NCBI GenBank assembly: GCA_024867545.1
Contig: JANFNE010000018.1
Span: 1-64,000, forward strand
DNA from: Phytopythium helicoides
Taxonomy: Eukaryota > Oomycota > Peronosporomycetes > Pythiales > Pythiaceae
DNA: 64,000 nucleotides
Direction of reading: 5' to 3'
The notes beneath the pieces were generated by a model. It was given only the letters and a program-made list of their open reading frames with translations, was not told the origin of the DNA and ran no database searches. Below are positions 29,665-50,499 of this stretch, one piece after another. Position 1 is the stretch's first letter. Every line of letters starts with the position of its first letter. The translations under genes were made by a program, and so were the position numbers.

Positions 29665-30927
29665 TTACATAACTGAGCACCGCTTGTTGGGCATGCAGCA
29701 ATCGTCGGCACCGACCGTGAGGTCGTTTCTTCTTGTATCCACATCAACTGTAGACTCATCCGACACGTTCTCGTGCGGAGCGTCTTCCCTCTGAGCCTTC
29801 TTGTCAGCCTTGGACTTGTCGTAGGCCAAGTAAATGGTGTTGTAGCCTTCGTCGCCCTTGTGCGCATCCCAGTAGTGCTCGTAGGCAACGTCGCCGTTGA
29901 GCGGCCAGTCGTTGAGGAAGCGTTCGGCCAGGTCCGGGTTGGCCATGTACAGGCGCGCAAAGCCGACGAGGTCAGCGGCCCCGCTGCGGAGCACGCCCTC
30001 GGCCACGTCGCGCGTGAGTGCACTGTTGGCGATGACGGTTCCCTTGAACGCCTTCTTGGCGTCCAACACCGTCAGCGGCGTGACACCCTCGTTGGCGCCG
30101 ATGAAGAAGCCGTCGAGCAGCGCCAGGTACGCGATCTTGTGCTCGCCCAGACGCTCGAACACGTACCGGAACATCTCGTTGTTGTCGGGACTTCCCATGC
30201 CGCCGAACACACCGTTGGGCGACAGACGCACGCCGATGCGGTCCGCAGGAAACACCGTCTTGAGTGCCTCCAGCAGCTCGTCCAGGAAGCGGTAGCGGTT
30301 CGCGAACGAGCCGCCGTACTTGTCCGTGCGCTGGTTGGTGCACGACTGCAGGAACTGATCCGGCAGGTACCCGTTGCCCGCGTGGACATCAATGCCGTCG
30401 AAGCCGATCTTCTTGCCGAGCTCGGCACACTTGCGGTAGTCCTCGATGATGTCGGCGATCTCGCTGATCTCGAGCGCGCGCGCACGCTCGAACTTGACCT
30501 GCTCGCCGTCGGCGTTGCGCGTGGAGCCCGTGTCGTAGTGGGTGGCGGACGCTGACACGACCTCGTTCTTCGGGTTGAACGACGGGTGCGACTGGCGACC
30601 CATGTGCCACAGCTGCAGGAAGATCTTGCTCCCCTTGGCGTGCACGCGGTCCACGAGCGTCTTCCAGCCGGCGGCGTGCTCCTCGTTGTACAGCGCGGGT
30701 GCTCCCCACCAGCCGTAGCCCTGCTCGGACACGGCCGTGGCCTCTCCGATGAGCAGACCGGCACCCGTGCGGTTCTCGTAGTACTCGTGCATGCGCGCGA
30801 TGGGGGCGCGCGTCTTGATGTCTGCGCGTGCGCGGGTCGTCGGGTTGTACACGATGCGGTTCTTGAGTGTCAGGCCCTTGGTCAGCTCGTACGGCGTGAA
30901 CATCTTGTAGTCTGCGATGGCGGCCAT
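29665..30927 (-). CDS. Old Yellow Enzyme-family flavin reductase, copy 1 (with CaaX tail)
   Basis: 420 residues. OYE/OPR signatures: FTPYELTKGLTLKNRIVYNPTTRARA (FMN-side strand with Thr31), GLLIGEATAVS, IFLQLWHMGRQSHPSF, and the substrate motif VHAGNGYLPDQFL, where His182 and Asn185 match the OYE anion-binding pair and Tyr187 the proton donor. DKYGGSFANRYRFLDELL and VGFARLYMANPDLAERFLNDWPLN are the FMN-phosphate region. The family uses NADPH to reduce activated C=C bonds of enones, including oxylipins such as 12-oxophytodienoate. Residues 1-377 equal the array consensus. Then a unique 43-residue tail begins AQREDAPHENVSDES and ends NKRCSVM, a farnesylation-type CaaX box. Copies 2-9 stop after KKN instead. 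It may therefore be the founder gene. Confidence 0.93.
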   Translation of the reverse strand: MAAIADYKMFTPYELTKGLTLKNRIVYNPTTRARADIKTRAPIARMHEYYENRTGAGLLIGEATAVSEQGYGWWGAPALYNEEHAAGWKTLVDRVHAKGSKIFLQLWHMGRQSHPSFNPKNEVVSASATHYDTGSTRNADGEQVKFERARALEISEIADIIEDYRKCAELGKKIGFDGIDVHAGNGYLPDQFLQSCTNQRTDKYGGSFANRYRFLDELLEALKTVFPADRIGVRLSPNGVFGGMGSPDNNEMFRYVFERLGEHKIAYLALLDGFFIGANEGVTPLTVLDAKKAFKGTVIANSALTRDVAEGVLRSGAADLVGFARLYMANPDLAERFLNDWPLNGDVAYEHYWDAHKGDEGYNTIYLAYDKSKADKKAQREDAPHENVSDESTVDVDTRRNDLTVGADDCCMPNKRCSVM

Positions 30928-32151
30928 GGTGACAGGATTGGTTGGTTCTGTGTGTGTGTGTGTGTGTTTGCAGGCTGGAGTGCTTGTCGAGCGCGGTGCA
31001 AATTGCAAAGTGAGGGAGCGAAGCCTGGGCCTCGACAGTCGAGCGCGCACACGAGATGGAGTGGTGGACCAGTGTTAGCACAGGTGCATGTATGGCTTGT
31101 GCGAGCCTCGAGGCAGCCGCAGACCGCGTCGCAATCCGGCGAGACACGACACGTGGTTCATTGACCTGGGTCTGTAGGCGCACCGCAATCCGTTTGGATT
31201 GCGCACGCCTTGGACGCCAACCTGCTGGTCAGTAAACAACGCGGACTGTACCGTGCATCGAAATGCTACTGCCTGCTATGGTAGAGCTACTACTTCTTCG
31301 AAGAGTACTACGTACAGGATCACTACTACTACTATATATACTCTACTACTCCAGTGGACCCGACTCGATTCGACTCGACCCGACTCGACCCGACTCGGAC
31401 GACGGCCGGCACCTGGGAGCATTAAGCCACCCATCCATCCACACCCACACGACCGCCAACGATGCACCATGCGGAATTGACGCCGCTGGCCTTGCCACTC
31501 ACCACGAGAGAAACGCGAGAGCAGTATTGGTGCATGTCCTTCGATGGACGCCATTTCAGACACTCATAGCTCGTCGCCGTCGCTAAGCTCGAGAGCCCGA
31601 GCATAGAAGTACGTACACGCTGCTCGGCAGTGACGGTAGCCATGCTGAGTGCGTGCTCCATTGTTGACGACCGCTACTTGCTAGATCATCTCGATTCGTC
31701 TCGTCTCGTCTCGTCTCGTCTCGTCTCGTCTCATCTCATTTCACCTCATCTTGTCAACTTGACAGTCAAGTGTGGTCACGCTCGCGCGGCAAACTGAGGC
31801 TGGTGGTGTGTTTAGAGTTTTAGATTTGCTATGCTAGATCGCTATGGTACTCGGAGTCGGTTGGGTAGGTAAGGTTAGTGCGATGCGTGGTAAGGTAGCT
31901 AGCTACTGAGTGAGGACTGGTGCAGGCTCGACTCGGTGGTAACCTTTGAAACGACAGTCAACAAAGCGGAAAAGGGACGGAAAGTCAGGTGTCTACTGAA
32001 TATTAGCTCCTCCGTCTGCGTCATTGCGTCATCTGCCTCCGTCCGTCGTCTGCGTCTGTCCGCCATCTTTCATCGTATCGTGTATCGTAGCTTCAGGTAG
32101 CACCTCACTCTCGACTGACTAACTTGGCCTCCTCTCTCTCTTTCTCTCCAC

Positions 32152-33288
32152 TCAGTTCTTCTTGTCAGCCTTGGACTTGTCGTAGGCCAAGTAAATGGTG
32201 TTGTAGCCTTCGTCGCCCTTGTGCGCATCCCAGTAGTGCTCGTAGGCAACGTCGCCGTTGAGCGGCCAGTCGTTGAGGAAGCGTTCGGCCAGGTCCGGGT
32301 TGGCCATGTACAGGCGCGCAAAGCCGACGAGGTCAGCGGCCCCGCTGCGGAGCACGCCCTCGGCCACGTCGCGCGTGAGTGCACTGTTGGCGATGACGGT
32401 TCCCTTGAACGCCTTCTTGGCGTCCAACACCGTCAGCGGCGTGACACCCTCGTTGGCGCCGATGAAGAAGCCGTCGAGCAGCGCCAGGTACGCGATCTTG
32501 TGCTCGCCCAGACGCTCGAACACGTACCGGAACATCTCGTTGTTGTCGGGACTTCCCATGCCGCCGAACACACCGTTGGGCGACAGACGCACGCCGATGC
32601 GGTCCGCAGGAAACACCGTCTTGAGTGCCTCCAGCAGCTCGTCCAGGAAGCGGTAGCGGTTCGCGAACGAACCGCCGTACTTGTCCGTGCGCTGGTTGGT
32701 GCACGACTGCAGGAACTGATCCGGCAGGTACCCGTTGCCCGCGTGGACATCAATGCCGTCGAAGCCGATCTTCTTGCCGAGCTCGGCACACTTGCGGTAG
32801 TCCTCGATGATGTCGGCGATCTCGCTGATCTCGAGCGCGCGCGCACGCTCGAACTTGACCTGCTCGCCGTCGGCGTTGCGCGTGGAGCCCGTGTCGTAGT
32901 GGGTGGCGGACGCTGACACGACCTCGTTCTTCGGGTTGAACGACGGGTGCGACTGGCGACCCATGTGCCACAGCTGCAGGAAGATCTTGCTCCCCTTGGC
33001 GTGCACGCGGTCCACGAGCGTCTTCCAGCCGGCGGCGTGCTCCTCGTTGTACAGCGCGGGTGCTCCCCACCAGCCGTAGCCCTGCTCGGACACGGCCGTG
33101 GCCTCTCCGATGAGCAGACCGGCACCCGTGCGGTTCTCGTAGTACTCGTGCATGCGCGCGATGGGGGCGCGCGTCTTGATGTCTGCGCGTGCGCGGGTCG
33201 TCGGGTTGTACACGATGCGGTTCTTGAGGGTCAGGTCCTTGGTCAGCTCGTACGGCGTGAACATCTTGTAGTCTGCGATGGCGGCCAT
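32152..33288 (-). CDS. Old Yellow Enzyme-family flavin reductase, copy 2
   Basis: 378 residues ending ADKKN. All catalytic motifs of copy 1 are present (His182, Asn185, Tyr187). The only protein change seen against the consensus is Gly18 to Asp (ELTKDLTLKN). The 5' flank carries an intact initiator (TCACTTTGCAATTTG on the - strand, 33362-33374) about 80 nt before the start codon. Confidence 0.93.
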   Translation of the reverse strand: MAAIADYKMFTPYELTKDLTLKNRIVYNPTTRARADIKTRAPIARMHEYYENRTGAGLLIGEATAVSEQGYGWWGAPALYNEEHAAGWKTLVDRVHAKGSKIFLQLWHMGRQSHPSFNPKNEVVSASATHYDTGSTRNADGEQVKFERARALEISEIADIIEDYRKCAELGKKIGFDGIDVHAGNGYLPDQFLQSCTNQRTDKYGGSFANRYRFLDELLEALKTVFPADRIGVRLSPNGVFGGMGSPDNNEMFRYVFERLGEHKIAYLALLDGFFIGANEGVTPLTVLDAKKAFKGTVIANSALTRDVAEGVLRSGAADLVGFARLYMANPDLAERFLNDWPLNGDVAYEHYWDAHKGDEGYNTIYLAYDKSKADKKN

Positions 33289-34501
33289 GGTGACTGGATT
33301 GGTTGGTTCTGTGTGTGTGTGTGTGTGTTTGCAGGCTGAAGTGCTTGTCGAGCGCGGTGCAAATTGCAAAGTGAGGGAGCGAAGCCTGGACCTTGGCAGT
33401 CGAGCGCGCGCGCGAGATGGAGTGGTGGACCAGTGTTAGCACAGGTGCATGTATGGCTTGTGCGAGCCACGAGGCGGCCGCAGACCGCGTCGCAATCCGG
33501 CAAGACACGACACGTGGTTCATTGACCTGGGTCTGTAGGCGCACCGCAATCCGTTTGGATTGCGCACGCCTTGGACGCCAACCTGCTGGTCAGTAAACAA
33601 CGCGGACTGTACCGTGCATCGAAATGCTACTGCCTGCTATGGTAGAGCTACTACTTCTTCGAAGAGTACTACGTACAGGATCACTACTACTACTATATAT
33701 ACTCTACTACTCCAGTGGACCCGACTCGATCCGACTCGACCCGACTCGACCCGACTCGGACGACGGCCGGCACCTGGGAGCATTAAGCCACCCATCCATC
33801 CACACCCACACGACCGCAACGATGCACCACGAGGAATTGACGCCGCTGGCCTTGCCACTCACCACGAGAGAAACGCGAGAGCAGTATTGGTGCATGTCCT
33901 TCGATGGACGCCATTTCAGACACTCATAGCTCGTCGCCGTCGCTAAGCTCGAGAGCCCGAGCATAGAAGTACGTACACGCTGCTCGGCAGTGACGGTAGC
34001 CATGCTGAGTGCGTGCTCCATTGTTGACGACCGCTACTTGCTAGATCATCTCGATTCGTCTCGTCTCGTCTCGTCTCGTCTCATCTCATTTCACCTCATC
34101 TTGTCAACTTGACAGTCAAGTGTGGTCACGCTCGCGCGGCAAACTGAGGCTGGTGGTGTGTTTAGAGTTTTAGATTTGCTATGCTAGATCGCTATGGTAC
34201 TCGGAGTCGGTTGGGTAGGTAAGGTTAGTGCGATGCGTGGTAAGGTAGCTAGCTACTGAGTGAGGACTGGTGCAGGCTCGACTCGGTGGTAACCTTTGAA
34301 ACGACAGTCAACAAAGCGGAAAAGAGACGGAAAGTCAGGTGTCTACTGAATATTAGCTCCTCCGTCTGCGTCATTGCGCCATCTGCCTCCGTCCGTCGTC
34401 TGCGTCTGTCCGCCATCTTTCATCGTATCGTGTATCGTAGCTTCAGGTAGCACCTCACTCTCGACTGACTAACTTGGCCTCCTCTCTCTCTTTCTCTCCA
34501 C

Positions 34502-35638
34502 TCAGTTCTTCTTGTCAGCCTTGGACTTGTCGTAGGCCAAGTAAATGGTGTTGTAGCCTTCGTCGCCCTTGTGCGCATCCCAGTAGTGCTCGTAGGCAAC
34601 GTCGCCGTTGAGCGGCCAGTCGTTGAGGAAGCGTTCGGCCAGGTCCGGGTTGGCCATGTACAGGCGCGCAAAGCCGACGAGGTCAGCGGCCCCGCTGCGG
34701 AGCACGCCCTCGGCCACGTCGCGCGTGAGTGCACTGTTGGCGATGACGGTTCCCTTGAACGCCTTCTTGGCGTCCAACACCGTCAGCGGCGTGACACCCT
34801 CGTTGGCGCCGATGAAGAAGCCGTCGAGCAGCGCCAGGTACGCGATCTTGTGCTCGCCCAGACGCTCGAACACGTACCGGAACATCTCGTTGTTGTCGGG
34901 ACTTCCCATGCCGCCGAACACACCGTTGGGCGACAGACGCACGCCGATGCGGTCCGCAGGAAACACCGTCTTGAGTGCCTCCAGCAGCTCGTCCAGGAAG
35001 CGGTAGCGGTTCGCGAACGAGCCGCCGTACTTGTCCGTGCGCTGGTTGGTGCACGACTGCAGGAACTGATCCGGCAGGTACCCGTTGCCCGCGTGGACAT
35101 CAATGCCGTCGAAGCCGATCTTCTTGCCGAGCTCGGCACACTTGCGGTAGTCCTCGATGATGTCGGCGATCTCGCTGATCTCGAGCGCGCGCGCACGCTC
35201 GAACTTGACCTGCTCGCCGTCGGCGTTGCGCGTGGAGCCCGTGTCGTAGTGGGTGGCGGACGCTGACACGACCTCGTTCTTCGGGTTGAACGACGGGTGC
35301 GACTGGCGACCCATGTGCCACAGCTGCAGGAAGATCTTGCTCCCCTTGGCGTGCACGCGGTCCACGAGCGTCTTCCAGCCGGCGGCGTGCTCCTCGTTGT
35401 ACAGCGCGGGTGCTCCCCACCAGCCGTAGCCCTGCTCGGACACGGCCGTGGCCTCTCCGATGAGCAGACCGGCACCCGTGCGGTTCTCGTAGTACTCGTG
35501 CATGCGCGCGATGGGGGCGCGCGTCTTGATGTCTGCGCGTGCGCGGGTCGTCGGGTTGTACACGATGCGGTTCTTGAGTGTCAGGCCCTTGGTCAGCTCG
35601 TACGGCGTGAACATCTTGTAGTCTGCGATGGCGGCCAT
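34502..35638 (-). CDS. Old Yellow Enzyme-family flavin reductase, copy 3
   Basis: 378 residues, the consensus sequence of the array, with all OYE motifs intact. The 5' flank has the intact oomycete initiator at about 35710-35722. The short C-terminus KKN is followed directly by spacer sequence (GAGTGGAGAGAAAGAG) not present after copy 1. Confidence 0.93.
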   Translation of the reverse strand: MAAIADYKMFTPYELTKGLTLKNRIVYNPTTRARADIKTRAPIARMHEYYENRTGAGLLIGEATAVSEQGYGWWGAPALYNEEHAAGWKTLVDRVHAKGSKIFLQLWHMGRQSHPSFNPKNEVVSASATHYDTGSTRNADGEQVKFERARALEISEIADIIEDYRKCAELGKKIGFDGIDVHAGNGYLPDQFLQSCTNQRTDKYGGSFANRYRFLDELLEALKTVFPADRIGVRLSPNGVFGGMGSPDNNEMFRYVFERLGEHKIAYLALLDGFFIGANEGVTPLTVLDAKKAFKGTVIANSALTRDVAEGVLRSGAADLVGFARLYMANPDLAERFLNDWPLNGDVAYEHYWDAHKGDEGYNTIYLAYDKSKADKKN

Positions 35639-36849
35639 GGTGACAGGATTGGTTGGTTCTGTGTGTGTGTGTGTGTTTGCAGGCTGGAGTGCTTGTCGAG
35701 CGCGGTGCAAATTGCAAAGTGAGGGAGCGAAGCCTGGGGCTCGACAGTCGAGCGCGCACACGAGATGGAGTGATGGACCAGTGTTAGCACAGGTGCATGT
35801 ATGGCTTGTGCGAGCCTCGAGGCAGCCGCAGACCGCGTCGCAATCCGGCAAGACACGACACGTGGTTCATTGACCTGGGTCTGTAGGCGCACCGCAATCC
35901 GTTTGGATTGCGCACGCCTTGGACGCCAACCTGCTGGTCAGTAAACAACGCGGACTGTACCGTGCATCGAAATGCTACTGCCTGCTATGGTAGAGCTACT
36001 ACTTCTTCGAAGAGTACTACGTACAGGATCACTACTACTACTATATATACTCTACTACTCCAGTGGACCCGACTCGATCCGACTCGACCCGACTCGACCC
36101 GACTCGGACGACGGCCGGCACCTGGGAGCATTAAGCCACCCATCCATCCACACCCACACGACCGCAACGATGCACCACGAGGAATTGACGCCGCTGGCCT
36201 TGCCACTCACCACGAGAGAAACGCGAGAGCAGTATTGGTGCATGTCCTTCGATGGACGCCATTTCAGACACTCATAGCTCGTCGCCGTCGCTAAGCTCGA
36301 GAGCCCGAGCATAGAAGTACGTACACGCTGCTCGGCAGTGACGGTAGCCATGCTGAGTGCGTGCTCCATTGTTGACGACCGCTACTTGCTAGATCATCTC
36401 GATTCGTCTCGTCTCGTCTCGTCTCGTCTCATCTCATTTCACCTCATCTTGTCAACTTGACAGTCAAGTGTGGTCACGCTCGCGCGGCAAACTGAGGCTG
36501 GTGGTGTGTTTAGAGTTTTAGATTTGCTATGCTAGATCGCTATGGTACTCGGAGTCGGTTGGGTAAGTAAGGTTAGTGCGATGCGTGGTAAGGTAGCTAG
36601 CTACTGAGTGAGGACTGGTGCAGGCTCGACTCGGTGGTAACCTTTGAAACGACAGTCAACAAAGCGGAAAAGGGACGGAAAGTCAGGTGTCTACTGAATA
36701 TTAGCTCCTCCGTCTGCGTCATTGCGTCATCTGCCTCCGTCCGTCGTCTGCGTCTGTCCGCCATCTTTCATCGTATCGTGTATCGTAGCTTCAGGTAGCA
36801 CCTCACTCTCGACTGACTAACTTGGCCTCCTCTCTCTCTTTCTCTCCAC

Positions 36850-37986
36850 TCAGTTCTTCTTGTCAGCCTTGGACTTGTCGTAGGCCAAGTAAATGGTGTT
36901 GTAGCCTTCGTCGCCCTTGTGCGCATCCCAGTAGTGCTCGTAGGCAACGTCGCCGTTGAGCGGCCAGTCGTTGAGGAAGCGTTCGGCCAGGTCCGGGTTG
37001 GCCATGTACAGGCGCGCAAAGCCGACGAGGTCAGCGGCCCCGCTGCGGAGCACGCCCTCGGCCACGTCGCGCGTGAGTGCACTGTTGGCGATGACGGTTC
37101 CCTTGAACGCCTTCTTGGCGTCCAACACCGTCAGCGGCGTGACACCCTCGTTGGCGCCGATGAAGAAGCCGTCGAGCAGCGCCAGGTACGCGATCTTGTG
37201 CTCGCCCAGACGCTCGAACACGTACCGGAACATCTCGTTGTTGTCGGGACTTCCCATGCCGCCGAACACACCGTTGGGCGACAGACGCACGCCGATGCGG
37301 TCCGCAGGAAACACCGTCTTGAGTGCCTCCAGCAGCTCGTCCAGGAAGCGGTAGCGGTTCGCGAACGAGCCGCCGTACTTGTCCGTGCGCTGGTTGGTGC
37401 ACGACTGCAGGAACTGATCCGGCAGGTACCCGTTGCCCGCGTGGACATCAATGCCGTCGAAGCCGATCTTCTTGCCGAGCTCGGCACACTTGCGGTAGTC
37501 CTCGATGATGTCGGCGATCTCGCTGATCTCGAGCGCGCGCGCACGCTCGAACTTGACCTGCTCGCCGTCGGCGTTGCGCGTGGAGCCCGTGTCGTAGTGG
37601 GTGGCGGACGCTGACACGACCTCGTTCTTCGGGTTGAACGACGGGTGCGACTGGCGACCCATGTGCCACAGCTGCAGGAAGATCTTGCTCCCCTTGGCGT
37701 GCACGCGGTCCACGAGCGTCTTCCAGCCGGCGGCGTGCTCCTCGTTGTACAGCGCGGGTGCTCCCCACCAGCCGTAGCCCTGCTCGGACACGGCCGTGGC
37801 CTCTCCGATGAGCAGACCGGCACCCGTGCGGTTCTCGTAGTACTCGTGCATGCGCGCGATGGGGGCGCGCGTCTTGATGTCTGCGCGTGCGCGGGTCGTC
37901 GGGTTGTACACGATGCGGTTCTTGAGTGTCAGGCCCTTGGTCAGCTCGTACGGCGTGAACATCTTGTAGTCTGCGATGGCGGCCAT
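36850..37986 (-). CDS. Old Yellow Enzyme-family flavin reductase, copy 4
   Basis: 378 residues, identical to copy 3 at the protein level. The initiator is intact (38064-38070 plus flanking GCAATTTG). The unit is also nearly identical to unit 3 in the spacer, including the short (CA)n run. Confidence 0.93.
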   Translation of the reverse strand: MAAIADYKMFTPYELTKGLTLKNRIVYNPTTRARADIKTRAPIARMHEYYENRTGAGLLIGEATAVSEQGYGWWGAPALYNEEHAAGWKTLVDRVHAKGSKIFLQLWHMGRQSHPSFNPKNEVVSASATHYDTGSTRNADGEQVKFERARALEISEIADIIEDYRKCAELGKKIGFDGIDVHAGNGYLPDQFLQSCTNQRTDKYGGSFANRYRFLDELLEALKTVFPADRIGVRLSPNGVFGGMGSPDNNEMFRYVFERLGEHKIAYLALLDGFFIGANEGVTPLTVLDAKKAFKGTVIANSALTRDVAEGVLRSGAADLVGFARLYMANPDLAERFLNDWPLNGDVAYEHYWDAHKGDEGYNTIYLAYDKSKADKKN

Positions 37987-39197
37987 GGTGACAGGATTGG
38001 TTGGTTCTGTGTGTGTGTGTGTGTTTGCAGGCTGGAGTGCTTGTCGAGCGCGGTGCAAATTGCAAAGTGAGGGAGCGAAGCCTGGGGCTCGACAGTCGAG
38101 CGCGCACACGAGATGGAGTGATGGACCAGTGTTAGCACAGGTGCATGTATGGCTTGTGCGAGCCTCGAGGCAGCCGCAGACCGCGTCGCAATCCGGCAAG
38201 ACACGACACGTGGTTCATTGACCTGGGTCTGTAGGCGCACCGCAATCCGTTTGGATTGCGCACGCCTTGGACGCCAACCTGCTGGTCAGTAAACAACGCG
38301 GACTGTACCGTGCATCGAAATGCTACTGCCTGCTATGGTAGAGCTACTACTTCTTCGAAGAGTACTACGTACAGGATCACTACTACTACTATATATACTC
38401 TACTACTCCAGTGGACCCGACTCGATCCGACTCGACCCGACTCGACCCGACTCGGACGACGGCCGGCACCTGGGAGCATTAAGCCACCCATCCATCCACA
38501 CCCACACGACCGCAACGATGCACCACGAGGAATTGACGCCGCTGGCCTTGCCACTCACCACGAGAGAAACGCGAGAGCAGTATTGGTGCATGTCCTTCGA
38601 TGGACGCCATTTCAGACACTCATAGCTCGTCGCCGTCGCTAAGCTCGAGAGCCCGAGCATAGAAGTACGTACACGCTGCTCGGCAGTGACGGTAGCCATG
38701 CTGAGTGCGTGCTCCATTGTTGACGACCGCTACTTGCTAGATCATCTCGATTCGTCTCGTCTCGTCTCGTCTCGTCTCATCTCATTTCACCTCATCTTGT
38801 CAACTTGACAGTCAAGTGTGGTCACGCTCGCGCGGCAAACTGAGGCTGGTGGTGTGTTTAGAGTTTTAGATTTGCTATGCTAGATCGCTATGGTACTCGG
38901 AGTCGGTTGGGTAGGTAAGGTTAGTGCGATGCGTGGTAAGGTAGCTAGCTACTGAGTGAGGACTGGTGCAGGCTCGACTCGGTGGTAACCTTTGAAACGA
39001 CAGTCAACAAAGCGGAAAAGAGACGGAAAGTCAGGTGTCTACTGAATATTAGCTCCTCCGTCTGCGTCATTGCGTCATCTGCCTCCGTCCGTCGTCTGCG
39101 TCTGTCCGCCATCTTTCATCGTATCGTGTATCGTAGCTTCAGGTAGCACCTCACTCTCGACTGACTAACTTGGCCTCCTCTCTCTCTTTCTCTCCAC

Positions 39198-40334
39198 TCA
39201 GTTCTTCTTGTCAGCCTTGGACTTGTCGTAGGCCAAGTAAATGGTGTTGTAGCCTTCGTCGCCCTTGTGCGCATCCCAGTAGTGCTCGTAGGCAACGTCG
39301 CCGTTGAGCGGCCAGTCGTTGAGGAAGCGTTCGGCCAGGTCCGGGTTGGCCATATACAGGCGCGCAAAGCCGACGAGGTCAGCGGCCCCGCTGCGGAGCA
39401 CGCCCTCGGCCACGTCGCGCGTGAGTGCACTGTTGGCGATGACGGTTCCCTTGAACGCCTTCTTGGCGTCCAACACCGTCAGCGGCGTGACACCCTCGTT
39501 GGCGCCGATGAAGAAGCCGTCGAGCAGCGCCAGGTACGCGATCTTGTGCTCGCCCAGACGCTCGAACACGTACCGGAACATCTCGTTGTTGTCGGGACTT
39601 CCCATGCCGCCGAACACACCGTTGGGCGACAGACGCACGCCGATGCGGTCCGCAGGAAACACCGTCTTGAGTGCCTCCAGCAGCTCGTCCAGGAAGCGGT
39701 AGCGGTTCGCGAACGAGCCGCCGTACTTGTCCGTGCGCTGGTTGGTGCACGACTGCAGGAACTGATCCGGCAGGTACCCGTTGCCCGCGTGGACATCAAT
39801 GCCGTCGAAGCCGATCTTCTTGCCGAGCTCGGCACACTTGCGGTAGTCCTCGATGATGTCGGCGATCTCGCTGATCTCGAGCGCGCGCGCACGCTCGAAC
39901 TTGACCTGCTCGCCGTCGGCGTTGCGCGTGGAGCCCGTGTCGTAGTGGGTGGCGGACGCTGACACGACCTCGTTCTTCGGGTTGAACGACGGGTGCGACT
40001 GGCGACCCATGTGCCACAGCTGCAGGAAGATCTTGCTCCCCTTGGCGTGCACGCGGTCCACGAGCGTCTTCCAGCCGGCGGCGTGCTCCTCGTTGTACAG
40101 CGCGGGTGCTCCCCACCAGCCGTAGCCCTGCTCGGACACGGCCGTGGCCTCTCCGATGAGCAGACCGGCACCCGTGCGGTTCTCGTAGTACTCGTGCATG
40201 CGCGCGATGGGGGCGCGCGTCTTGATGTCTGCGCGTGCGCGGGTCGTCGGGTTGTACACGATGCGGTTCTTGAGTGTCAGGCCCTTGGTCAGCTCGTACG
40301 GCGTGAACATCTTGTAGTCTGCGATGGCGGCCAT
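39198..40334 (-). CDS. Old Yellow Enzyme-family flavin reductase, copy 5
   Basis: 378 residues, identical to copy 3 in protein. One silent base change is visible near 39354 (GCCATATACAGG against GCCATGTACAGG). From this copy to copy 7 the flanking element reads GCTATTTG instead of GCAATTTG, a shared variant that groups these units. Confidence 0.93.
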   Translation of the reverse strand: MAAIADYKMFTPYELTKGLTLKNRIVYNPTTRARADIKTRAPIARMHEYYENRTGAGLLIGEATAVSEQGYGWWGAPALYNEEHAAGWKTLVDRVHAKGSKIFLQLWHMGRQSHPSFNPKNEVVSASATHYDTGSTRNADGEQVKFERARALEISEIADIIEDYRKCAELGKKIGFDGIDVHAGNGYLPDQFLQSCTNQRTDKYGGSFANRYRFLDELLEALKTVFPADRIGVRLSPNGVFGGMGSPDNNEMFRYVFERLGEHKIAYLALLDGFFIGANEGVTPLTVLDAKKAFKGTVIANSALTRDVAEGVLRSGAADLVGFARLYMANPDLAERFLNDWPLNGDVAYEHYWDAHKGDEGYNTIYLAYDKSKADKKN

Positions 40335-41551
40335 GGTGACAGGATTGGTTGGTTCTGTGTGTGTGTGTGTGTGTGTGTTTGCAGGCTGGAGTGCTTGTCG
40401 AGCGCGGTGCAAATAGCAAAGTGAGGGAGCGAAGCCTGGGGCTCGACAGTCGAGCGCGCACACGAGATGGAGTGATGGACCAGTGTTAGCACAGGTGCAT
40501 GTATGGCTTGTGCGAGCCTCGAGGCAGCCGCAGACCGCGTCGCAATCCGGCAAGACACGACACGTGGTTCATTGACCTGGGTCTGTAGGCGCACCGCAAT
40601 CCGTTTGGATTGCGCACGCCTTGGACGCCAACCTGCTGGTCAGTAAACAACGCGGACTGTACCGTGCATCGAAATGCTACTGCCTGCTATGGTAGAGCTA
40701 CTACTTCTTCGAAGAGTACTACGTACAGGATCACTACTACTACTATATATACTCTACTACTCCAGTGGACCCGACTCGATCCGACTCGACCCGACTCGAC
40801 CCGACTCGGACGACGGCCGGCACCTGGGAGCATTAAGCCACCCATCCATCCACACCCACACGACCGCAACGATGCACCACGAGGAATTGACGCCGCTGGC
40901 CTTGCCACTCACCACGAGAGAAACGCGAGAGCAGTATTGGTGCATGTCCTTCGATGGACGCCATTTCAGACACTCATAGCTCGTCGCCGTCGCTAAGCTC
41001 GAGAGCCCGAGCATAGAAGTACGTACACGCTGCTCGGCAGTGACGGTAGCCATGCTGAGTGCGTGCTCCATTGTTGACGACCGCTACTTGCTAGATCATC
41101 TCGATTCGTCTCGTCTCGTCTCGTCTCGTCTCATCTCATTTCACCTCATCTTGTCAACTTGACAGTCAAGTGTGGTCACGCTCGCGCGGCAAACTGAGGC
41201 TGGTGGTGTGTTTAGAGTTTTAGATTTGCTATGCTAGATCGCTATGGTACTCGGAGTCGGTTGGGTAAGTAAGGTTAGTGCGATGCGTGGTAAGGTAGCT
41301 AGCTACTGAGTGAGGACTGGTGCAGGCTCGACTCGGTGGTAACCTTTGAAACGACAGTCAACAAAGCGGAAAAGGGACGGAAAGTCAGGTGTCTACTGAA
41401 TATTAGCTCCTCCGTCTGCGTCATTGCGTCATCTGCCTCCGTCCGTCGTCTGCGTCTGTCCGCCATCTTTCATCGTATCGTGTATCGTAGCTTCAGGTAG
41501 CACCTCACTCTCGACTGACTAACTTGGCCTCCTCTCTCTCTTTCTCTCCAC

Positions 41552-42688
41552 TCAGTTCTTCTTGTCAGCCTTGGACTTGTCGTAGGCCAAGTAAATGGTG
41601 TTGTAGCCTTCGTCGCCCTTGTGCGCATCCCAGTAGTGCTCGTAGGCAACGTCGCCGTTGAGCGGCCAGTCGTTGAGGAAGCGTTCGGCCAGGTCCGGGT
41701 TGGCCATGTACAGGCGCGCAAAGCCGACGAGGTCAGCGGCCCCGCTGCGGAGCACGCCCTCGGCCACGTCGCGCGTGAGTGCACTGTTGGCGATGACGGT
41801 TCCCTTGAACGCCTTCTTGGCGTCCAACACCGTCAGCGGCGTGACACCCTCGTTGGCGCCGATGAAGAAGCCGTCGAGCAGCGCCAGGTACGCGATCTTG
41901 TGCTCGCCCAGACGCTCGAACACGTACCGGAACATCTCGTTGTTGTCGGGACTTCCCATGCCGCCGAACACACCGTTGGGCGACAGACGCACGCCGATGC
42001 GGTCCGCAGGAAACACCGTCTTGAGTGCCTCCAGCAGCTCGTCCAGGAAGCGGTAGCGGTTCGCGAACGAGCCGCCGTACTTGTCCGTGCGCTGGTTGGT
42101 GCACGACTGCAGGAACTGATCCGGCAGGTACCCGTTGCCCGCGTGGACATCAATGCCGTCGAAGCCGATCTTCTTGCCGAGCTCGGCACACTTGCGGTAG
42201 TCCTCGATGATGTCGGCGATCTCGCTGATCTCGAGCGCGCGCGCACGCTCGAACTTGACCTGCTCGCCGTCGGCGTTGCGCGTGGAGCCCGTGTCGTAGT
42301 GGGTGGCGGACGCTGACACGACCTCGTTCTTCGGGTTGAACGACGGGTGCGACTGGCGACCCATGTGCCACAGCTGCAGGAAGATCTTGCTCCCCTTGGC
42401 GTGCACGCGGTCCACGAGCGTCTTCCAGCCGGCGGCGTGCTCCTCGTTGTACAGCGCGGGTGCTCCCCACCAGCCGTAGCCCTGCTCGGACACGGCCGTG
42501 GCCTCTCCGATGAGCAGACCGGCACCCGTGCGGTTCTCGTAGTACTCGTGCATGCGCGCGATGGGGGCGCGCGTCTTGATGTCTGCGCGTGCGCGGGTCG
42601 TCGGGTTGTACACGATGCGGTTCTTGAGTGTCAGGCCCTTGGTCAGCTCGTACGGCGTGAACATCTTGTAGTCTGCGATGGCGGCCAT
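41552..42688 (-). CDS. Old Yellow Enzyme-family flavin reductase, copy 6
   Basis: 378 residues, identical to copy 3 in protein. The flanking promoter element is the GCTATTTG variant (initiator at 42774-42780). The (CA)n run before the start codon is longer than in copies 3-5. Confidence 0.93.
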   Translation of the reverse strand: MAAIADYKMFTPYELTKGLTLKNRIVYNPTTRARADIKTRAPIARMHEYYENRTGAGLLIGEATAVSEQGYGWWGAPALYNEEHAAGWKTLVDRVHAKGSKIFLQLWHMGRQSHPSFNPKNEVVSASATHYDTGSTRNADGEQVKFERARALEISEIADIIEDYRKCAELGKKIGFDGIDVHAGNGYLPDQFLQSCTNQRTDKYGGSFANRYRFLDELLEALKTVFPADRIGVRLSPNGVFGGMGSPDNNEMFRYVFERLGEHKIAYLALLDGFFIGANEGVTPLTVLDAKKAFKGTVIANSALTRDVAEGVLRSGAADLVGFARLYMANPDLAERFLNDWPLNGDVAYEHYWDAHKGDEGYNTIYLAYDKSKADKKN

Positions 42689-43907
42689 GGTGACAGGATT
42701 GGTTGGTTCTGTGTGTGTGTGTGTGTGTGTGTGTTTGCAGGCTGGAGTGCTTGTCGAGCGCGGTGCAAATAGCAAAGTGAGGGAGCGAAGCCTGGGGCTC
42801 GACAGTCGAGCGCGCACACGAGATGGAGTGATGGACCAGTGTTAGCACAGGTGCATGTATGGCTTGTGCGAGCCTCGAGGCAGCCGCAGACCGCGTCGCA
42901 ATCCGGCAAGACACGACACGTGGTTCATTGACCTGGGTCTGTAGGCGCACCGCAATCCGTTTGGATTGCGCACGCCTTGGACGCCAACCTGCTGGTCAGT
43001 AAACAACGCGGACTGTACCGTGCATCGAAATGCTACTGCCTGCTATGGTAGAGCTACTACTTCTTCGAAGAGTACTACGTACAGGATCACTACTACTACT
43101 ATATATACTCTACTACTCCAGTGGACCCGACTCGATCCGACTCGACCCGACTCGACCCGACTCGGACGACGGCCGGCACCTGGGAGCATTAAGCCACCCA
43201 TCCATCCACACCCACACGACCGCAACGATGCACCACGAGGAATTGACGCCGCTGGCCTTGCCACTCACCACGAGAGAAACGCGAGAGCAGTATTGGTGCA
43301 TGTCCTTCGATGGACGCCATTTCAGACACTCATAGCTCGTCGCCGTCGCTAAGCTCGAGAGCCCGAGCATAGAAGTACGTACACGCTGCTCGGCAGTGAC
43401 GGTAGCCATGCTGAGTGCGTGCTCCATTGTTGACGACCGCTACTTGCTAGATCATCTCGATTCGTCTCGTCTCGTCTCGTCTCGTCTCATCTCATTTCAC
43501 CTCATCTTGTCAACTTGACAGTCAAGTGTGGTCACGCTCGCGCGGCAAACTGAGGCTGGTGGTGTGTTTAGAGTTTTAGATTTGCTATGCTAGATCGCTA
43601 TGGTACTCGGAGTCGGTTGGGTAAGTAAGGTTAGTGCGATGCGTGGTAAGGTAGCTAGCTACTGAGTGAGGACTGGTGCAGGCTCGACTCGGTGGTAACC
43701 TTTGAAACGACAGTCAACAAAGCGGAAAAGAGACGGAAAGTCAGGTGTCTACTGAATATTAGCTCCTCCGTCTGCGTCATTGCGTCATCTGCCTCCGTCC
43801 GTCGTCTGCGTCTGTCCGCCATCTTTCATCGTATCGTGTATCGTAGCTTCAGGTAGCACCTCACTCTCGACTGACTAACTTGGCCTCCTCTCTCTCTTTC
43901 TCTCCAC

Positions 43908-45044
43908 TCAGTTCTTCTTGTCAGCCTTGGACTTGTCGTAGGCCAAGTAAATGGTGTTGTAGCCTTCGTCGCCCTTGTGCGCATCCCAGTAGTGCTCGTA
44001 GGCAACGTCGCCGTTGAGCGGCCAGTCGTTGAGGAAGCGTTCGGCCAGGTCCGGGTTGGCCATGTACAGGCGCGCAAAGCCGACGAGGTCAGCGGCCCCG
44101 CTGCGGAGCACGCCCTCGGCCACGTCGCGCGTGAGTGCACTGTTGGCGATGACGGTTCCCTTGAACGCCTTCTTGGCGTCCAACACCGTCAGCGGCGTGA
44201 CACCCTCGTTGGCGCCGATGAAGAAGCCGTCGAGCAGCGCCAGGTACGCGATCTTGTGCTCGCCCAGACGCTCGAACACGTACCGGAACATCTCGTTGTT
44301 GTCGGGACTTCCCATGCCGCCGAACACACCGTTGGGCGACAGACGCACGCCGATGCGGTCCGCAGGAAACACCGTCTTGAGTGCCTCCAGCAGCTCGTCC
44401 AGGAAGCGGTAGCGGTTCGCGAACGAGCCGCCGTACTTGTCCGTGCGCTGGTTGGTGCACGACTGCAGGAACTGATCCGGCAGGTACCCGTTGCCCGCGT
44501 GGACATCAATGCCGTCGAAGCCGATCTTCTTGCCGAGCTCGGCACACTTGCGGTAGTCCTCGATGATGTCGGCGATCTCGCTGATCTCGAGCGCGCGCGC
44601 ACGCTCGAACTTGACCTGCTCGCCGTCGGCGTTGCGCGTGGAGCCCGTGTCGTAGTGGGTGGCGGACGCTGACACGACCTCGTTCTTCGGGTTGAACGAC
44701 GGGTGCGACTGGCGACCCATGTGCCACAGCTGCAGGAAGATCTTGCTCCCCTTGGCGTGCACGCGGTCCACGAGCGTCTTCCAGCCGGCGGCGTGCTCCT
44801 CGTTGTACAGCGCGGGTGCTCCCCACCAGCCGTAGCCCTGCTCGGACACGGCCGTGGCCTCTCCGATGAGCAGACCGGCACCCGTGCGGTTCTCGTAGTA
44901 CTCGTGCATGCGCGCGATGGGGGCGCGCGTCTTGATGTCTGCGCGTGCGCGGGTCGTCGGGTTGTACACGATGCGGTTCTTGAGTGTCAGGCCCTTGGTC
45001 AGCTCGTACGGCGTGAACATCTTGTAGTCTGCGATGGCGGCCAT
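43908..45044 (-). CDS. Old Yellow Enzyme-family flavin reductase, copy 7 (promoter truncated)
   Basis: 378 residues, identical to copy 3 in protein. It has the longest (CA)n leader run of the - strand copies. Array homology upstream of this gene ends just beyond the initiator (CTCACTTTGC at about 45134-45145); further upstream is unique junction sequence. Any distal promoter elements of the other copies are therefore missing, and its expression may differ. Confidence 0.92.
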   Translation of the reverse strand: MAAIADYKMFTPYELTKGLTLKNRIVYNPTTRARADIKTRAPIARMHEYYENRTGAGLLIGEATAVSEQGYGWWGAPALYNEEHAAGWKTLVDRVHAKGSKIFLQLWHMGRQSHPSFNPKNEVVSASATHYDTGSTRNADGEQVKFERARALEISEIADIIEDYRKCAELGKKIGFDGIDVHAGNGYLPDQFLQSCTNQRTDKYGGSFANRYRFLDELLEALKTVFPADRIGVRLSPNGVFGGMGSPDNNEMFRYVFERLGEHKIAYLALLDGFFIGANEGVTPLTVLDAKKAFKGTVIANSALTRDVAEGVLRSGAADLVGFARLYMANPDLAERFLNDWPLNGDVAYEHYWDAHKGDEGYNTIYLAYDKSKADKKN

Positions 45045-45062
45045 GGTGACAGGATTGGTTGG

Positions 45063-45100
<38 letters not shown>

Positions 45101-45600
45101 AGGCTGGAGTGCTTGTCGAGCGCGGTGCAAATAGCAAAGTGAGGGAGTGACAGTAACATTGCTTTGTCTTCCATGTTAGTTTTGATTGAGATTTCTGTTG
45201 CCTGGGACAACCACTTCACATTGAAGTAGTCTTCAATTGTTTCAGTTTGGATGATCCCATGCTTACATCAGCATGAGCCGAATCCGTTTTGTCGGCTAAT
45301 CATGCGAAGGTGATTTTGATTGGCCATCTGTTTTTGAATCTGAATTTGATTGGGCAGCTCGCATTGGTTACCACGCTTACAAAACGCCCAGCCAAGATTG
45401 CGAGCGTGCGCAATCTCCAAGCTGAGTCCCATGAGCAAAACAGACACGACAAATTCCAATGATCAATGGTTCCACAGCCGAACACCTTGAAAACAAGACC
45501 GCAGGGGGTCTCTCACCTCATCTTCGGCTCACGAGCATGACACCAAACCAGCAGCCTCTCAGTTTGCAATTTGCACCGCGCTCGACAAGCACTCCAGCCT

Positions 45601-45638
<38 letters not shown>

Positions 45639-45656
45639 CCAACCAATCCTGTCACC
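45045..45656. promoter_or_regulatory. Inverted junction between the two array arms
   Basis: This is the head-to-head region of copies 7 (-) and 8 (+). About 410 bp of sequence found nowhere else in the array (45148-45562) lies between the two core promoters. On the left the initiator is intact (TCACTTT at 45136-45142, - strand). On the right it reads TCAGTTT (45559-45565), so homology starts inside the initiator. The unique stretch contains no gene that I recognise. Confidence 0.8.
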
Positions 45657-46793
45657 ATGGCCGCCATCGCAGACTACAAGATGTTCACGCCGTACGAGCT
45701 GACCAAGGGCCTGACACTCAAGAACCGCATCGTGTACAACCCGACGACCCGCGCACGCGCAGACATCAAGACGCGCGCCCCCATCGCGCGCATGCACGAG
45801 TACTACGAGAACCGCACGGGTGCCGGTCTGCTCATCGGAGAGGCCACGGCCGTGTCCGAGCAGGGCTACGGCTGGTGGGGAGCACCCGCGCTGTACAACG
45901 AGGAGCACGCCGCCGGCTGGAAGACGCTCGTGGACCGCGTGCACGCCAAGGGGAGCAAGATCTTCCTGCAGCTGTGGCACATGGGTCGCCAGTCGCACCC
46001 GTCGTTCAACCCGAAGAACGAGGTCGTGTCAGCGTCCGCCACCCACTACGACACGGGCTCCACGCGCAACGCCGACGGCGAGCAGGTCAAGTTCGAGCGT
46101 GCGCGCGCGCTCGAGATCAGCGAGATCGCCGACATCATCGAGGACTACCGCAAGTGTGCCGAGCTCGGCAAGAAGATCGGCTTCGACGGCATTGATGTCC
46201 ACGCGGGCAACGGGTACCTGCCGGATCAGTTCCTGCAGTCGTGCACCAACCAGCGCACGGACAAGTACGGCGGCTCGTTCGCGAACCGCTACCGCTTCCT
46301 GGACGAGCTGCTGGAGGCACTCAAGACGGTGTTTCCTGCGGACCGCATCGGCGTGCGTCTGTCGCCCAACGGTGTGTTCGGCGGCATGGGAAGTCCCGAC
46401 AACAACGAGATGTTCCGGTACGTGTTCGAGCGTCTGGGCGAGCACAAGATCGCGTACCTGGCGCTGCTCGACGGCTTCTTCATCGGCGCCAACGAGGGTG
46501 TCACGCCGCTGACGGTGTTGGACGCCAAGAAGGCGTTCAAGGGAACCGTCATCGCCAACAGTGCACTCACGCGCGACGTGGCCGAGGGCGTGCTCCGCAG
46601 CGGGGCCGCTGACCTCGTCGGCTTTGCGCGCCTGTACATGGCCAACCCGGACCTGGCCGAACGCTTCCTCAACGACTGGCCGCTCAACGGCGACGTTGCC
46701 TACGAGCACTACTGGGATGCGCACAAGGGCGACGAAGGCTACAACACCATTTACTTGGCCTACGACAAGTCCAAGGCTGACAAGAAGAACTGA
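45657..46793 (+). CDS. Old Yellow Enzyme-family flavin reductase, copy 8 (inverted arm)
   Basis: 378 residues, identical to copy 3 in protein, but on the + strand. The initiator differs at one core base (TCAGTTT in place of TCACTTT) because the array homology begins there; the flanking GCAATTTG is kept. An in-frame Met at 45459 would add 66 residues, including a His-Thr run from the (CA)n tract, but the Met at 45657 matches the other copies. Confidence 0.92.
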   Translation: MAAIADYKMFTPYELTKGLTLKNRIVYNPTTRARADIKTRAPIARMHEYYENRTGAGLLIGEATAVSEQGYGWWGAPALYNEEHAAGWKTLVDRVHAKGSKIFLQLWHMGRQSHPSFNPKNEVVSASATHYDTGSTRNADGEQVKFERARALEISEIADIIEDYRKCAELGKKIGFDGIDVHAGNGYLPDQFLQSCTNQRTDKYGGSFANRYRFLDELLEALKTVFPADRIGVRLSPNGVFGGMGSPDNNEMFRYVFERLGEHKIAYLALLDGFFIGANEGVTPLTVLDAKKAFKGTVIANSALTRDVAEGVLRSGAADLVGFARLYMANPDLAERFLNDWPLNGDVAYEHYWDAHKGDEGYNTIYLAYDKSKADKKN

Positions 46794-47924
46794 GTGGAGA
46801 GAAAGAGAGAGAGGAGGCCAAGTTAGTCAGTCGAGAGTGAGGTGCTACCTGAAGCTACGATACACGATACGATGAAAGATGGCGGACAGACGCAGACGAC
46901 GGACGGAGGCAGATGACGCAATGACGCAGACGGAGGAGCTAATATTCAGTAGACACCTGACTTTCCGTCTCTTTTCCGCTTTGTTGACTGTCGTTTCAAA
47001 GGTTACCACCGAGTCGAGCCTGCACCAGTCCTCACTCAGTAGCTAGCTACCTTACCACGCATCGCACTAACCTTACCTACCCAACCGACTCCGAGTACCA
47101 TAGCGATCTAGCATAGCAAATCTAAAACTCTAAACACACCACCAGCCTCAGTTTGCCGCGCGAGCGTGACCACACTTGACTGTCAAGTTGACAAGATGAG
47201 GTGAAATGAGATGAGACGAGACGAGACGAGACGAGACGAATCGAGATGATCTAGCAAGTAGCGGTCGTCAACAATGGAGCACGCACTCAGCATGGCTACC
47301 GTCACTGCCGAGCAGCGTGTACGTACTTCTATGCTCGGGCTCTCGAGCTTAGCGACGGCGACGAGCTATGAGTGTCTGAAATGGCGTCCATCGAAGGACA
47401 TGCACCAATACTGCTCTCGCGTTTCTCTCGTGGTGAGTGGCAAGGCCAGCGGCGTCAATTCCTCGTGGTGCATCGTTGCGGTCGTGTGGGTGTGGATGGA
47501 TGGGTGGCTTAATGCTCCCAGGTGCCGGCCGTCGTCCGAGTCGGGTCGAGTCGGGTCGAGTCGGATCGAGTCGGGTCCACTGGAGTAGTAGAGTATATAT
47601 AGTAGTAGTAGTGATCCTGTACGTAGTACTCTTCGAAGAAGTAGTAGCTCTACCATAGCAGGCAGTAGCATTTCGATGCACGGTACAGTCCGCGTTGTTT
47701 ACTGACCAGCAGGTTGGCGTCCAAGGCGTGCGCAATCCAAACGGATTGCGGTGCGCCTACAGACCCAGGTCAATGAACCACGTGTCGTGTCTTGCCGGAT
47801 TGCGACGCGGTCTGCGGCTGCCTCGAGGCTCGCACAAGCCATACATGCACCTGTGCTAACACTGGTCCACCACTCCATCTCGTGTGCGCGCTCGACTGTC
47901 GAGGCCCAGGCTTCGCTCCCTCAC

Positions 47925-47950
47925 TTTGCAATTTGCACCGCGCTCGACAA
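47925..47950 (+). promoter_or_regulatory. Oomycete initiator plus flanking element (representative of all copies)
   Basis: CCTCACTTTGCAATTTGC matches the known oomycete core promoter (initiator TCAYTYY followed by CAWTTT). It sits about 80 nt before the start codon of copy 9. The same block lies upstream of copies 1-4 (31003-31013, 33364-33374, 35712-35722, 38060-38070). In copies 5-7 the flanking part is CTATTT, and in copy 8 the initiator is mutated. Confidence 0.75.
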
Positions 47951-48010
47951 GCACTCCAGCCTGCAAACACACACACACACACACACACAGAACCAACCAA
48001 TCCTGTCACC

Positions 48011-49147
48011 ATGGCCGCCATCGCAGACTACAAGATGTTCACGCCGTACGAGCTGACCAAGGGCCTGACACTCAAGAACCGCATCGTGTACAACCCGACG
48101 ACCCGCGCACGCGCAGACATCAAGACGCGCGCCCCCATCGCGCGCATGCACGAGTACTACGAGAACCGCACGGGTGCCGGTCTGCTCATCGGAGAGGCCA
48201 CGGCCGTGTCCGAGCAGGGCTACGGCTGGTGGGGAGCACCCGCGCTGTACAACGAGGAGCACGCCGCCGGCTGGAAGACGCTCGTGGACCGCGTGCACGC
48301 CAAGGGGAGCAAGATCTTCCTGCAGCTGTGGCACATGGGTCGCCAGTCGCACCCGTCGTTCAACCCGAAGAACGAGGTCGTGTCAGCGTCCGCCACCCAC
48401 TACGACACGGGCTCCACGCGCAACGCCGACGGCGAGCAGGTCAAGTTCGAGCGTGCGCGCGCGCTCGAGATCAGCGAGATCGCCGACATCATCGAGGACT
48501 ACCGCAAGTGTGCCGAGCTCGGCAAGAAGATCGGCTTCGACGGCATTGATGTCCACGCGGGCAACGGGTACCTGCCGGATCAGTTCCTGCAGTCGTGCAC
48601 CAACCAGCGCACGGACAAGTACGGCGGCTCGTTCGCGAACCGCTACCGCTTCCTGGACGAGCTGCTGGAGGCACTCAAGACGGTGTTTCCTGCGGACCGC
48701 ATCGGCGTGCGTCTGTCGCCCAACGGTGTGTTCGGCGGCATGGGAAGTCCCGACAACAACGAGATGTTCCGGTACGTGTTCGAGCGTCTGGGCGAGCACA
48801 AGATCGCGTACCTGGCGCTGCTCGACGGCTTCTTCATCGGCGCCAACGAGGGTGTCACGCCGCTGACGGTGTTGGACGCCAAGAAGGCGTTCAAGGGAAC
48901 CGTCATCGCCAACAGTGCACTCACGCGCGACGTGGCCGAGGGCGTGCTCCGCAGCGGGGCCGCTGACCTCGTCGGCTTTGCGCGCCTGTACATGGCCAAC
49001 CCGGACCTGGCCGAACGCTTCCTCAACGACTGGCCGCTCAACGGCGACGTTGCCTACGAGCACTACTGGGATGCGCACAAGGGCGACGAAGGCTACAACA
49101 CCATTTACTTGGCCTACGACAAGTCCAAGGCTGACAAGAAGAACTGA
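48011..49147 (+). CDS. Old Yellow Enzyme-family flavin reductase, copy 9 (inverted arm)
   Basis: 378 residues, identical to copy 3 in protein. It has a complete 5' spacer and an intact initiator (TCACTTT at 47931-47937 followed by GCAATTTG). This is the last copy of the inverted arm. The 3' spacer continues to about 49934 with noticeably more base changes than between inner units. Confidence 0.93.
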   Translation: MAAIADYKMFTPYELTKGLTLKNRIVYNPTTRARADIKTRAPIARMHEYYENRTGAGLLIGEATAVSEQGYGWWGAPALYNEEHAAGWKTLVDRVHAKGSKIFLQLWHMGRQSHPSFNPKNEVVSASATHYDTGSTRNADGEQVKFERARALEISEIADIIEDYRKCAELGKKIGFDGIDVHAGNGYLPDQFLQSCTNQRTDKYGGSFANRYRFLDELLEALKTVFPADRIGVRLSPNGVFGGMGSPDNNEMFRYVFERLGEHKIAYLALLDGFFIGANEGVTPLTVLDAKKAFKGTVIANSALTRDVAEGVLRSGAADLVGFARLYMANPDLAERFLNDWPLNGDVAYEHYWDAHKGDEGYNTIYLAYDKSKADKKN

Positions 49148-50136
49148 GTGGAGAGAAAGAGAGAGAGGAGGCCAAGTTAGTCAGTCGAGAGTGAGGTGCT
49201 ACCTGAAGCTACGATACACGATACGATGAAAGATGGCGGACAGACGCAGACGACGGACGGAGGCAGATGACGCAATGACGCAGACGGAGGAGCTAATATT
49301 CAGTAGACACCTGACTTTCCGTCTCTTTTCCGCTTTGTTGACTGTCGTTTCAAAGGTTACCACCGAGTCGAGCCTGCACCAGTCCTCACTCAGTAGCTAG
49401 CTACCTTACCACGCATCGCACTAACCTTACTTACCCAACCGACTCCGAGTACCATAGCGATCTAGCATAGCAAATCTAAAACTCTAAACACACCACCAGC
49501 CTCAGTTTGCCGCGCGAGCGTGACCACACTTGACTGTCAAGTTGACAAGATGAGGTGAAGTGAGATGAGACGAGACGAGACGAATCGAGATGATCTGCCT
49601 AGTAGTGGTCGTCAACGATGAAGCACGCACCCAGCATGACTACCGTCGCCGCCGAGCAGCGTGTACGTACTTCTATGCTCGGGCTCTCGAGCTTAGGGAC
49701 GGCGACGAGCTCTGAGCGTCTGAAATGGCGTCCATCGAAGGACATGCACCAATACTGCTCTCGCGTTTCTCTCGTGGTGACTGGCAAGGCCAGTGGCGTC
49801 AATTTCGCATGGTGGGTCGTTGGCGGCCGTGTGGATGTGGGTGAGTGGGTGGATTAATGCTACTAGGTGCCGGCCGCCGTCCGAGTCGGGTCGAGTCGGG
49901 TCGAGTCGGGTCCACTGGAGTAGTAGAGTATATTGCGTACCCGATCTGAGGCTCGGGGGTTCGAAGTTCTCGCAGCGAGCAAGGGGTTATGTTGATCAAC
50001 GACGTGGGGTTGTCGTTCTAGCGCGGATGTATATGAAAGCGACGGCGTTGATTGATTGACGGACGCGATCACTACTCGATGAAAGGAACTGCACTGAAAT
50101 CAGTGCGCCAGACTGCGGCTGCCTGCCGACACGCTT

Positions 50137-50352: not shown

Positions 50353-50499
50353 AGAGATCCTAATTATATCGTTTGCTTGGGTTCCTACATACCCACTGCG
50401 ATGCAATGCATGCCATCGACGCACTTAGGTATGGATTCCATTTCTTCGACATCGCTCTGAGACGGCGGCATGAATTGCTGCACTCAGCGAAATAGATCG

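What the first reader, a model, noticed from the sequence alone, without database searches (positions are those of the whole stretch)
29665..49934. Nine near-identical Old Yellow Enzyme genes in a recent local amplification
Units of ~2.35 kb repeat with steps of 2348-2361 bp. Copies 3-9 encode the same protein, copy 2 differs by Gly18Asp, and spacers are also nearly identical, so the amplification is very recent or actively homogenised. OYE enzymes reduce enones and can act on plant oxylipins or toxic aldehydes, so extra dosage could be adaptive in a plant-associated oomycete (inference).
Basis: partly seen in the sequence, partly recalled or inferred. Interest (0 to 1): 0.88.

Follow-up and report, generated by a model that had tools for sequence, protein, structure and literature searches.

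The report
Homogenised inverted array of ene-reductase genes
A water-mould (oomycete) genome carries nine nearly identical copies of a probable detoxifying enzyme gene side by side, seven facing one way and two the other, which look like an older array whose inner copies keep being made alike rather than one very recent burst.

Summary
Confirmed: nine Old Yellow Enzyme genes (PF00724) at 29665-49933, same-strand steps 2348-2361 bp. Copies 3-9 encode one 378-aa protein. Copy 2 has G18D, at a site where D is common (46 of 125 rows). Copy 1 matches to residue 377, then gains a 43-aa tail ending CSVM.

"Very recent" is only part of it. The outer spacer is about 8% diverged beyond a sharp border; spacer SNPs show four gametes in 4 of 10 site pairs, all through one site. 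That fits an older array kept alike by exchange. Coding varies less than spacer (4/1131 v 19/1211, p=0.003). A broken relative (94%) lies at 60.7-61.8 kb.

The genome has about 47 OYE loci; inverted OYE pairs recur on C38, C41 and C22. Relatives place the organism among oomycetes. No reads were available, so copy number and inversion depend on the assembly. The plant-oxylipin idea is untested. New member of a known kind.

The parts
29668..30927 (-). copy c1: OYE residues 1-377 identical to c3, then a 43-aa tail ending CSVM (stop at 29665-29667)
32152..33288 (-). copy c2, G18D plus two silent changes
34502..35638 (-). copy c3, 378 aa
36850..37986 (-). copy c4, same protein
39198..40334 (-). copy c5, same protein, one silent change
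41552..42688 (-). copy c6, same protein
43908..45044 (-). copy c7, same protein, inner end of left arm
45151..45557 (.). 407 bp centre (46% GC) between head-to-head c7 and c8; no second match of this stretch found in the assembly; probable shared upstream region (inference)
45657..46793 (+). copy c8, same protein, inner end of right arm
48011..49147 (+). copy c9, same protein
49148..49933 (+). partial outer spacer after c9: first 412 bp 1-2 mismatches to each of three inner spacers compared, the next ~372 bp 28-30
49932..51436 (.). dispersed repeat abutting the right end (89% to a stretch on C17, further copies elsewhere)
29223..29553 (.). dispersed repeat near the left end
60682..61806 (-). 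c10: broken relative, 94% identical, frameshifted in its last third, Gln in place of the catalytic His

Best explanation
An Old Yellow Enzyme (FMN ene-reductase) gene of an oomycete was duplicated both in tandem and head to head, giving seven minus and two plus copies around a 407 bp centre. Shown: layout, nine open frames, conserved catalytic segment, interior near-identical with a diverged outer spacer, spacer SNPs that do not fit one tree, lower coding than spacer variation. Inferred: unequal crossing over and gene conversion keep the copies alike, perhaps also between the arms; the copies are transcribed from their own core promoters; the gain is enzyme dosage against reactive enones or similar electrophiles. 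Likely founder (inference): c7/c8 keep the founding upstream region, because tandem homology and arm homology both stop near the same core-promoter-like motif.
For: Nine PF00724 genes, 7 minus and 2 plus. Four gametes at 4 of 10 pairs of informative spacer sites; the right-arm spacer s8>9 shares alleles with left-arm spacers s2>1 and s3>2. Sharp border at base 412 of the outer spacer. Outer s2>1 shares three variants with the right outer spacer. Coding 4/1131 v spacer 19/1211, p=0.003; 1 v 9, p=0.02 without c2 and its spacer. Catalytic H-N-Y segment aligned to solved ene-reductases (residue roles recalled). Motif resembling the oomycete INR+FPR upstream of 9 of 9 copies, though these are copies of one or two original sites.
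Against: No reads, so copy number and the inversion rest on one assembly. No expression data. All four four-gamete pairs involve site 177, so recurrent change at that site would explain them; they persist without the right arm, so exchange between arms is not shown. The most divergent full spacer is s3>2, not the outermost. Low coding variation could be conversion bias rather than selection. The array lineage has a long branch and four changes at sites at least 95% conserved, so activity might be altered; 6 of 60 relatives have as many. Founder order is not proved.
Confidence: 0.7

Rival explanations
1. Single very recent burst of amplification, with no continuing exchange.
For: The c3 and c4 units differ by 2 bases in 2348; seven of nine proteins identical. 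The four-gamete signal hangs on one site.
Against: Outer spacer about 8% diverged with a sharp border; spacer SNPs do not fit one tree without repeated change.
Confidence: 0.18
2. Assembly artefact: copy number or the inverted join is wrong.
For: No reads available; near-identical units longer than 2 kb are hard to assemble; the array lies 30 kb from a contig end.
Against: Copies carry their own SNPs and repeat lengths; the centre is distinct sequence, and no full-length near-identical second copy of the centre or of the two flank stretches searched was found; a simple fold-back artefact would give matching outer ends, which these arms lack.
Confidence: 0.1
3. Relaxed array drifting to pseudogenes, with no benefit from dosage.
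For: c10 is broken; long branch.
Against: Nine open frames; coding varies less than spacer; dN/dS about 0.3 against the C22a paralog.
Confidence: 0.1

Closest known systems
Phytophthora sojae Avr1a/Avr1c tandem array (PMC3933651, passages seen)
   Same: Tandem segments in an oomycete, with copy number variation reported among strains
   Different: Effector genes, four related 5.2 kb segments; no inverted layout in the passages seen
P. sojae Avr3c array (PMC2678259, passages including the abstract)
   Same: Three near-identical segments in tandem; sequence exchange between copies inferred by the authors
   Different: 33.7 kb segments holding nine genes; effector
Pythium oligandrum OYE cluster
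   Different: Copies 55-63% identical to the query; no homogenised array shown here
Solved ene-reductases (6uff, XenB 4ab4, PETN reductase 1gvo, OPR1 1vji)
   Same: Sequence match over nearly the whole protein; catalytic segment aligned for the three best, 6uff among them
   Different: Substrate of the array enzyme unknown

Membership tests
Old Yellow Enzyme family (PF00724) | Oxidored_FMN domain above curated cut-off | tested here: met
   238 bits v cut-off 27 for c1 and c8; nine of nine copies over cut-off
Old Yellow Enzyme family (PF00724) | Active-site H..N.Y segment (roles recalled) | tested here: met
   vHAGNGY aligned to iHAANGY in 6uff; kept in c1-c9, His replaced in c10
Old Yellow Enzyme family (PF00724) | FMN binding and NAD(P)H-dependent ene reduction | not testable with these tools
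   needs purified protein
12-oxophytodienoate reductase (by function) | Reduces OPDA | not testable with these tools
   database names only
Tandem array under concerted evolution | Head-to-tail near-identical units | tested here: met
   but split into two opposite arms
Tandem array under concerted evolution | End units more diverged than interior | tested here: inconclusive
   clear at the right end; at the left, s2>1 shares three old variants but s3>2 is the most divergent full spacer
Tandem array under concerted evolution | Reticulate variants among units | tested here: inconclusive
   4 of 10 pairs of five informative sites show four gametes, all through site 177
Tandem array under concerted evolution | Copies group by isolate or species, not by position | not testable with these tools
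   no sister isolate held
Inverted duplication (fold-back type) | Near-identical opposite arms around a spacer | tested here: met
   4.4 kb arms, 98.6%, 407 bp centre
Prenylated protein (copy 1 only) | CaaX end, used in vivo | tested here: inconclusive
   CSVM end; 10 of 1756 background stops CaaX-like by a loose rule, 0 of 1756 by a strict one; tail GC3 0.63 v 0.90 in c3; no homologue found

The most novel reading that the evidence does not exclude
Copy 1 is a new chimeric gene: the array's left break fused an intact OYE to a 43-aa tail ending in a CaaX-like box, giving a prenylated, membrane-held ene-reductase beside eight soluble ones, while the c7/c8 centre acts as a two-way promoter.
Probability: 0.12. 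Interest if true: 0.55.

Novelty: new member of a known kind. Interest (0 to 1): 0.4.

Why it matters
It shows an enzyme gene of an oomycete, not an effector, held as a near-identical array in two opposite arms, within a family of about 47 loci where inverted pairs recur. If reads confirm it, the locus is a natural test of how gene dosage and gene conversion shape an enzyme family in water moulds, with copy-specific markers at hand.

Tried and rejected
Copy 1 tail as ancestral C-terminus: the nearest paralogs (C22) end KQEQVEDKP, vaguely like KKAQREDAP, but the 400 bp holding the tail and its 3' flank aligned to the 3' regions of four paralogs and c10 no better than 200 shuffles did, and the metagenome relative P0002 ends QKKN like c2-c9, so the direction is open. 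Tail as a piece of a small GTPase (CSVM recalled as the end of Rheb): of 81 Ras-family rows 30 loci were fetched and none ends CSVM (one ends CIVM, one CSIL). A pattern for one set of CSVM-stop codons hit five places, one of them c1; the other four give, by eye, three long unrelated ORFs and one 7-residue frame. Protein search of the tail: one candidate, none scored. tblastn of it in plasmids: none, a poor collection for a eukaryote. Spacer continuing beyond the right repeat or left of c1: nothing convincing. c10 as a smooth old copy: its differences are clustered (variance/mean 3.5 v at most 1.7 in 2000 shuffles), which may mean partial conversion; not pursued. Structure model of c1: pLDDT 72.9, pTM 0.77, tail 376-420 below 50, but some core segments below 50 too; no fold search run. 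PMC5635513 gave no matching passage; PMC6895562 named flavin oxidoreductase only in its references. Controls: P450 rows also suggest a 4-unit array on C1; aldehyde dehydrogenase shows no identical-score neighbours, but only 11 of 39 candidates were scored.

Full report
What is there. The window is bases 1-64000 of contig C11 (1.13 Mb) of a 49.06 Mb, 100-contig assembly. PF00724 gives 52 rows in the genome, which I merged by hand into about 47 loci; nine full rows lie in the interval. Genes c1-c7 are on the minus strand with ATGs starting at 30927, 33288, 35638, 37986, 40334, 42688 and 45044; c8 and c9 are on the plus strand with ATGs at 45657 and 48011. So this is not one head-to-tail row: two arms face away from a 407 bp centre, 45151-45557, of 46% GC, for which no second match was found in the assembly. 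The arms match over 4.4 kb at 98.6%.

Proteins. c3-c9 are identical (378 aa); c2 has G18D and two silent changes; c5 has one silent change. At position 18, the 125 rows compared (111 database relatives, 14 own paralogs) have G in 58, D in 46 and N in 12, so the change is probably mild. c1 equals c3 to residue 377, then reads 43 further residues ending CSVM. The tail has no homologue found, GC3 0.63 against 0.90 for c3 and at least 0.81 for any 43-codon stretch of it, and low model confidence, so it looks more like read-through into flanking DNA than a coding exon; yet only 10 of 1756 background stops are preceded by a loosely CaaX-like end and 0 of 1756 by a strict one. The array protein is closest among solved chains to ene-reductases.

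How old and how kept alike. Among seven full spacers 19 of 1211 ungapped columns vary; in the nine genes 4 of 1131 (Fisher p=0.003; 9 v 1, p=0.02, leaving out c2 and its spacer). That may be selection on the protein, or conversion favouring the gene. Five spacer sites are informative; 4 of 10 pairs show all four gametes, all four involving site 177, so one repeatedly mutated site could also explain it, and the pattern does not need the right arm. The partial spacer after c9, compared with three inner spacers, has 1-2 mismatches in its first 412 bases and 28-30 in the next ~372. The spacer beside c1 shares three variants (two bases, one insertion) with that outer piece. The most divergent full spacer is s3>2, second from the left (10-15 differences). 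I read this as an array whose edges partly escape homogenisation; the right edge shows it clearly, the left less so. c10 is 94% alike, frameshifted, and has Gln for the catalytic His; NG86 dN 0.036 and dS 0.127 against c3 over 293 codons, and dN 0.138 and dS 0.468 for c3 against C22a over 377 codons. In a 59-row tree the array and c10 group (100/100) on a branch of 0.31, nearest the C22 pair (84/71, weak) and then P0001 (98/88). Four array residues depart from sites at least 95% conserved; 6 of 60 relatives and one of the seven own paralogs counted have as many.

Regulation. A 16-base motif recalled as the oomycete INR+FPR consensus, with up to 3 mismatches, occurs 19 times in the window (4.7 expected; 0 of 100 shuffles reach 19), once upstream of each of the nine copies, 86-100 bp before the ATG; the six hits with 2 mismatches are all array copies (distances). 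The nine are copies of one or two original sites, and the other ten hits, all with 3 mismatches, are themselves near the chance range (largest shuffle 11), so the motif is suggestive only. PMC3599244 (passages including the abstract) describes a 16-nt INR+FPR motif near start sites, found in several oomycetes; the consensus string itself was not found there. c7 and c8 have the centre upstream; the other seven copies have a spacer of about 1.2 kb.

Surroundings. A dispersed repeat starts at 49932, where the array ends; another lies at 29223-29553. Similar DNA lies on both sides (27832-28965 and 53378-54542, 66%). Inverted OYE pairs elsewhere: C38 2181 bp arms at 99.7%, C41 1264 bp at 99.3%, C22 2548 bp at 92%. 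P450 rows on C1 repeat four times at steps of 4.36-4.46 kb, each a plus match left of a minus match, so local amplification is probably not peculiar to OYE here; the identity of those units was not measured.

Organism. None of the 120 listed OYE hits is identical; the two nearest (73 and 71%) are metagenome proteins and the best named ones are Phytophthora, Nothophytophthora, Globisporangium and Pythium (69% and lower). A PH-domain protein of the window is 88, 75 and 67% to unnamed sources and at most 57% over most of its length to named oomycetes (72% only over a quarter to a third of it). An oomycete is well supported; a Phytopythium-like genus is my guess.

Known comparisons. P. sojae effector arrays are the nearest described cases seen. 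Searches for OYE, flavin oxidoreductase, ene-reductase or OPR with oomycete or Phytophthora listed no paper that, from title and abstract start, describes such an array; capped lists and the open-licence library limit this. PMC12414984 (passages) reports several 12-oxophytodienoate reductases of P. cinnamomi changing with phosphite, without a substrate test in the passages seen.

Limits. No reads, no expression, no second isolate; the assembly could still miscount units.

Noticed in passing
own genome C1:1380796-1396492: P450 rows in four repeats at steps of 4.36-4.46 kb, each a plus match left of a minus match: probably a second local amplification; identity not measured.
   Followed up: no
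own genome C50:179562-219238: Part of the repeat that borders the array (82%) recurs at five plus places with alternating 4934 and 11374 bp steps and a sixth inverted: an array of about 16.3 kb units.
   Followed up: no
window 50140-50340: By eye, degenerate stretches resembling an ABC-transporter P-loop and a cytosine deaminase inside the right-hand repeat; Pfam gave nothing for the one ORF tested.
   Followed up: partly
window 23007-28818 and 52931-59344: Several similar ORFs with a basic RRxAQVAxSxRxHRxRKK-like stretch on both sides of the array; one gives a sub-threshold bZIP match.
   Followed up: partly
own genome C38:33067-41212: Near-perfect inverted duplicate with identical OYE proteins, 2181 bp arms at 99.7% plus 1.2 kb at 97%.
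   Followed up: partly
window 60682-61806: Differences of c10 from the array are strongly clustered, which may reflect conversion tracts.
   Followed up: partly
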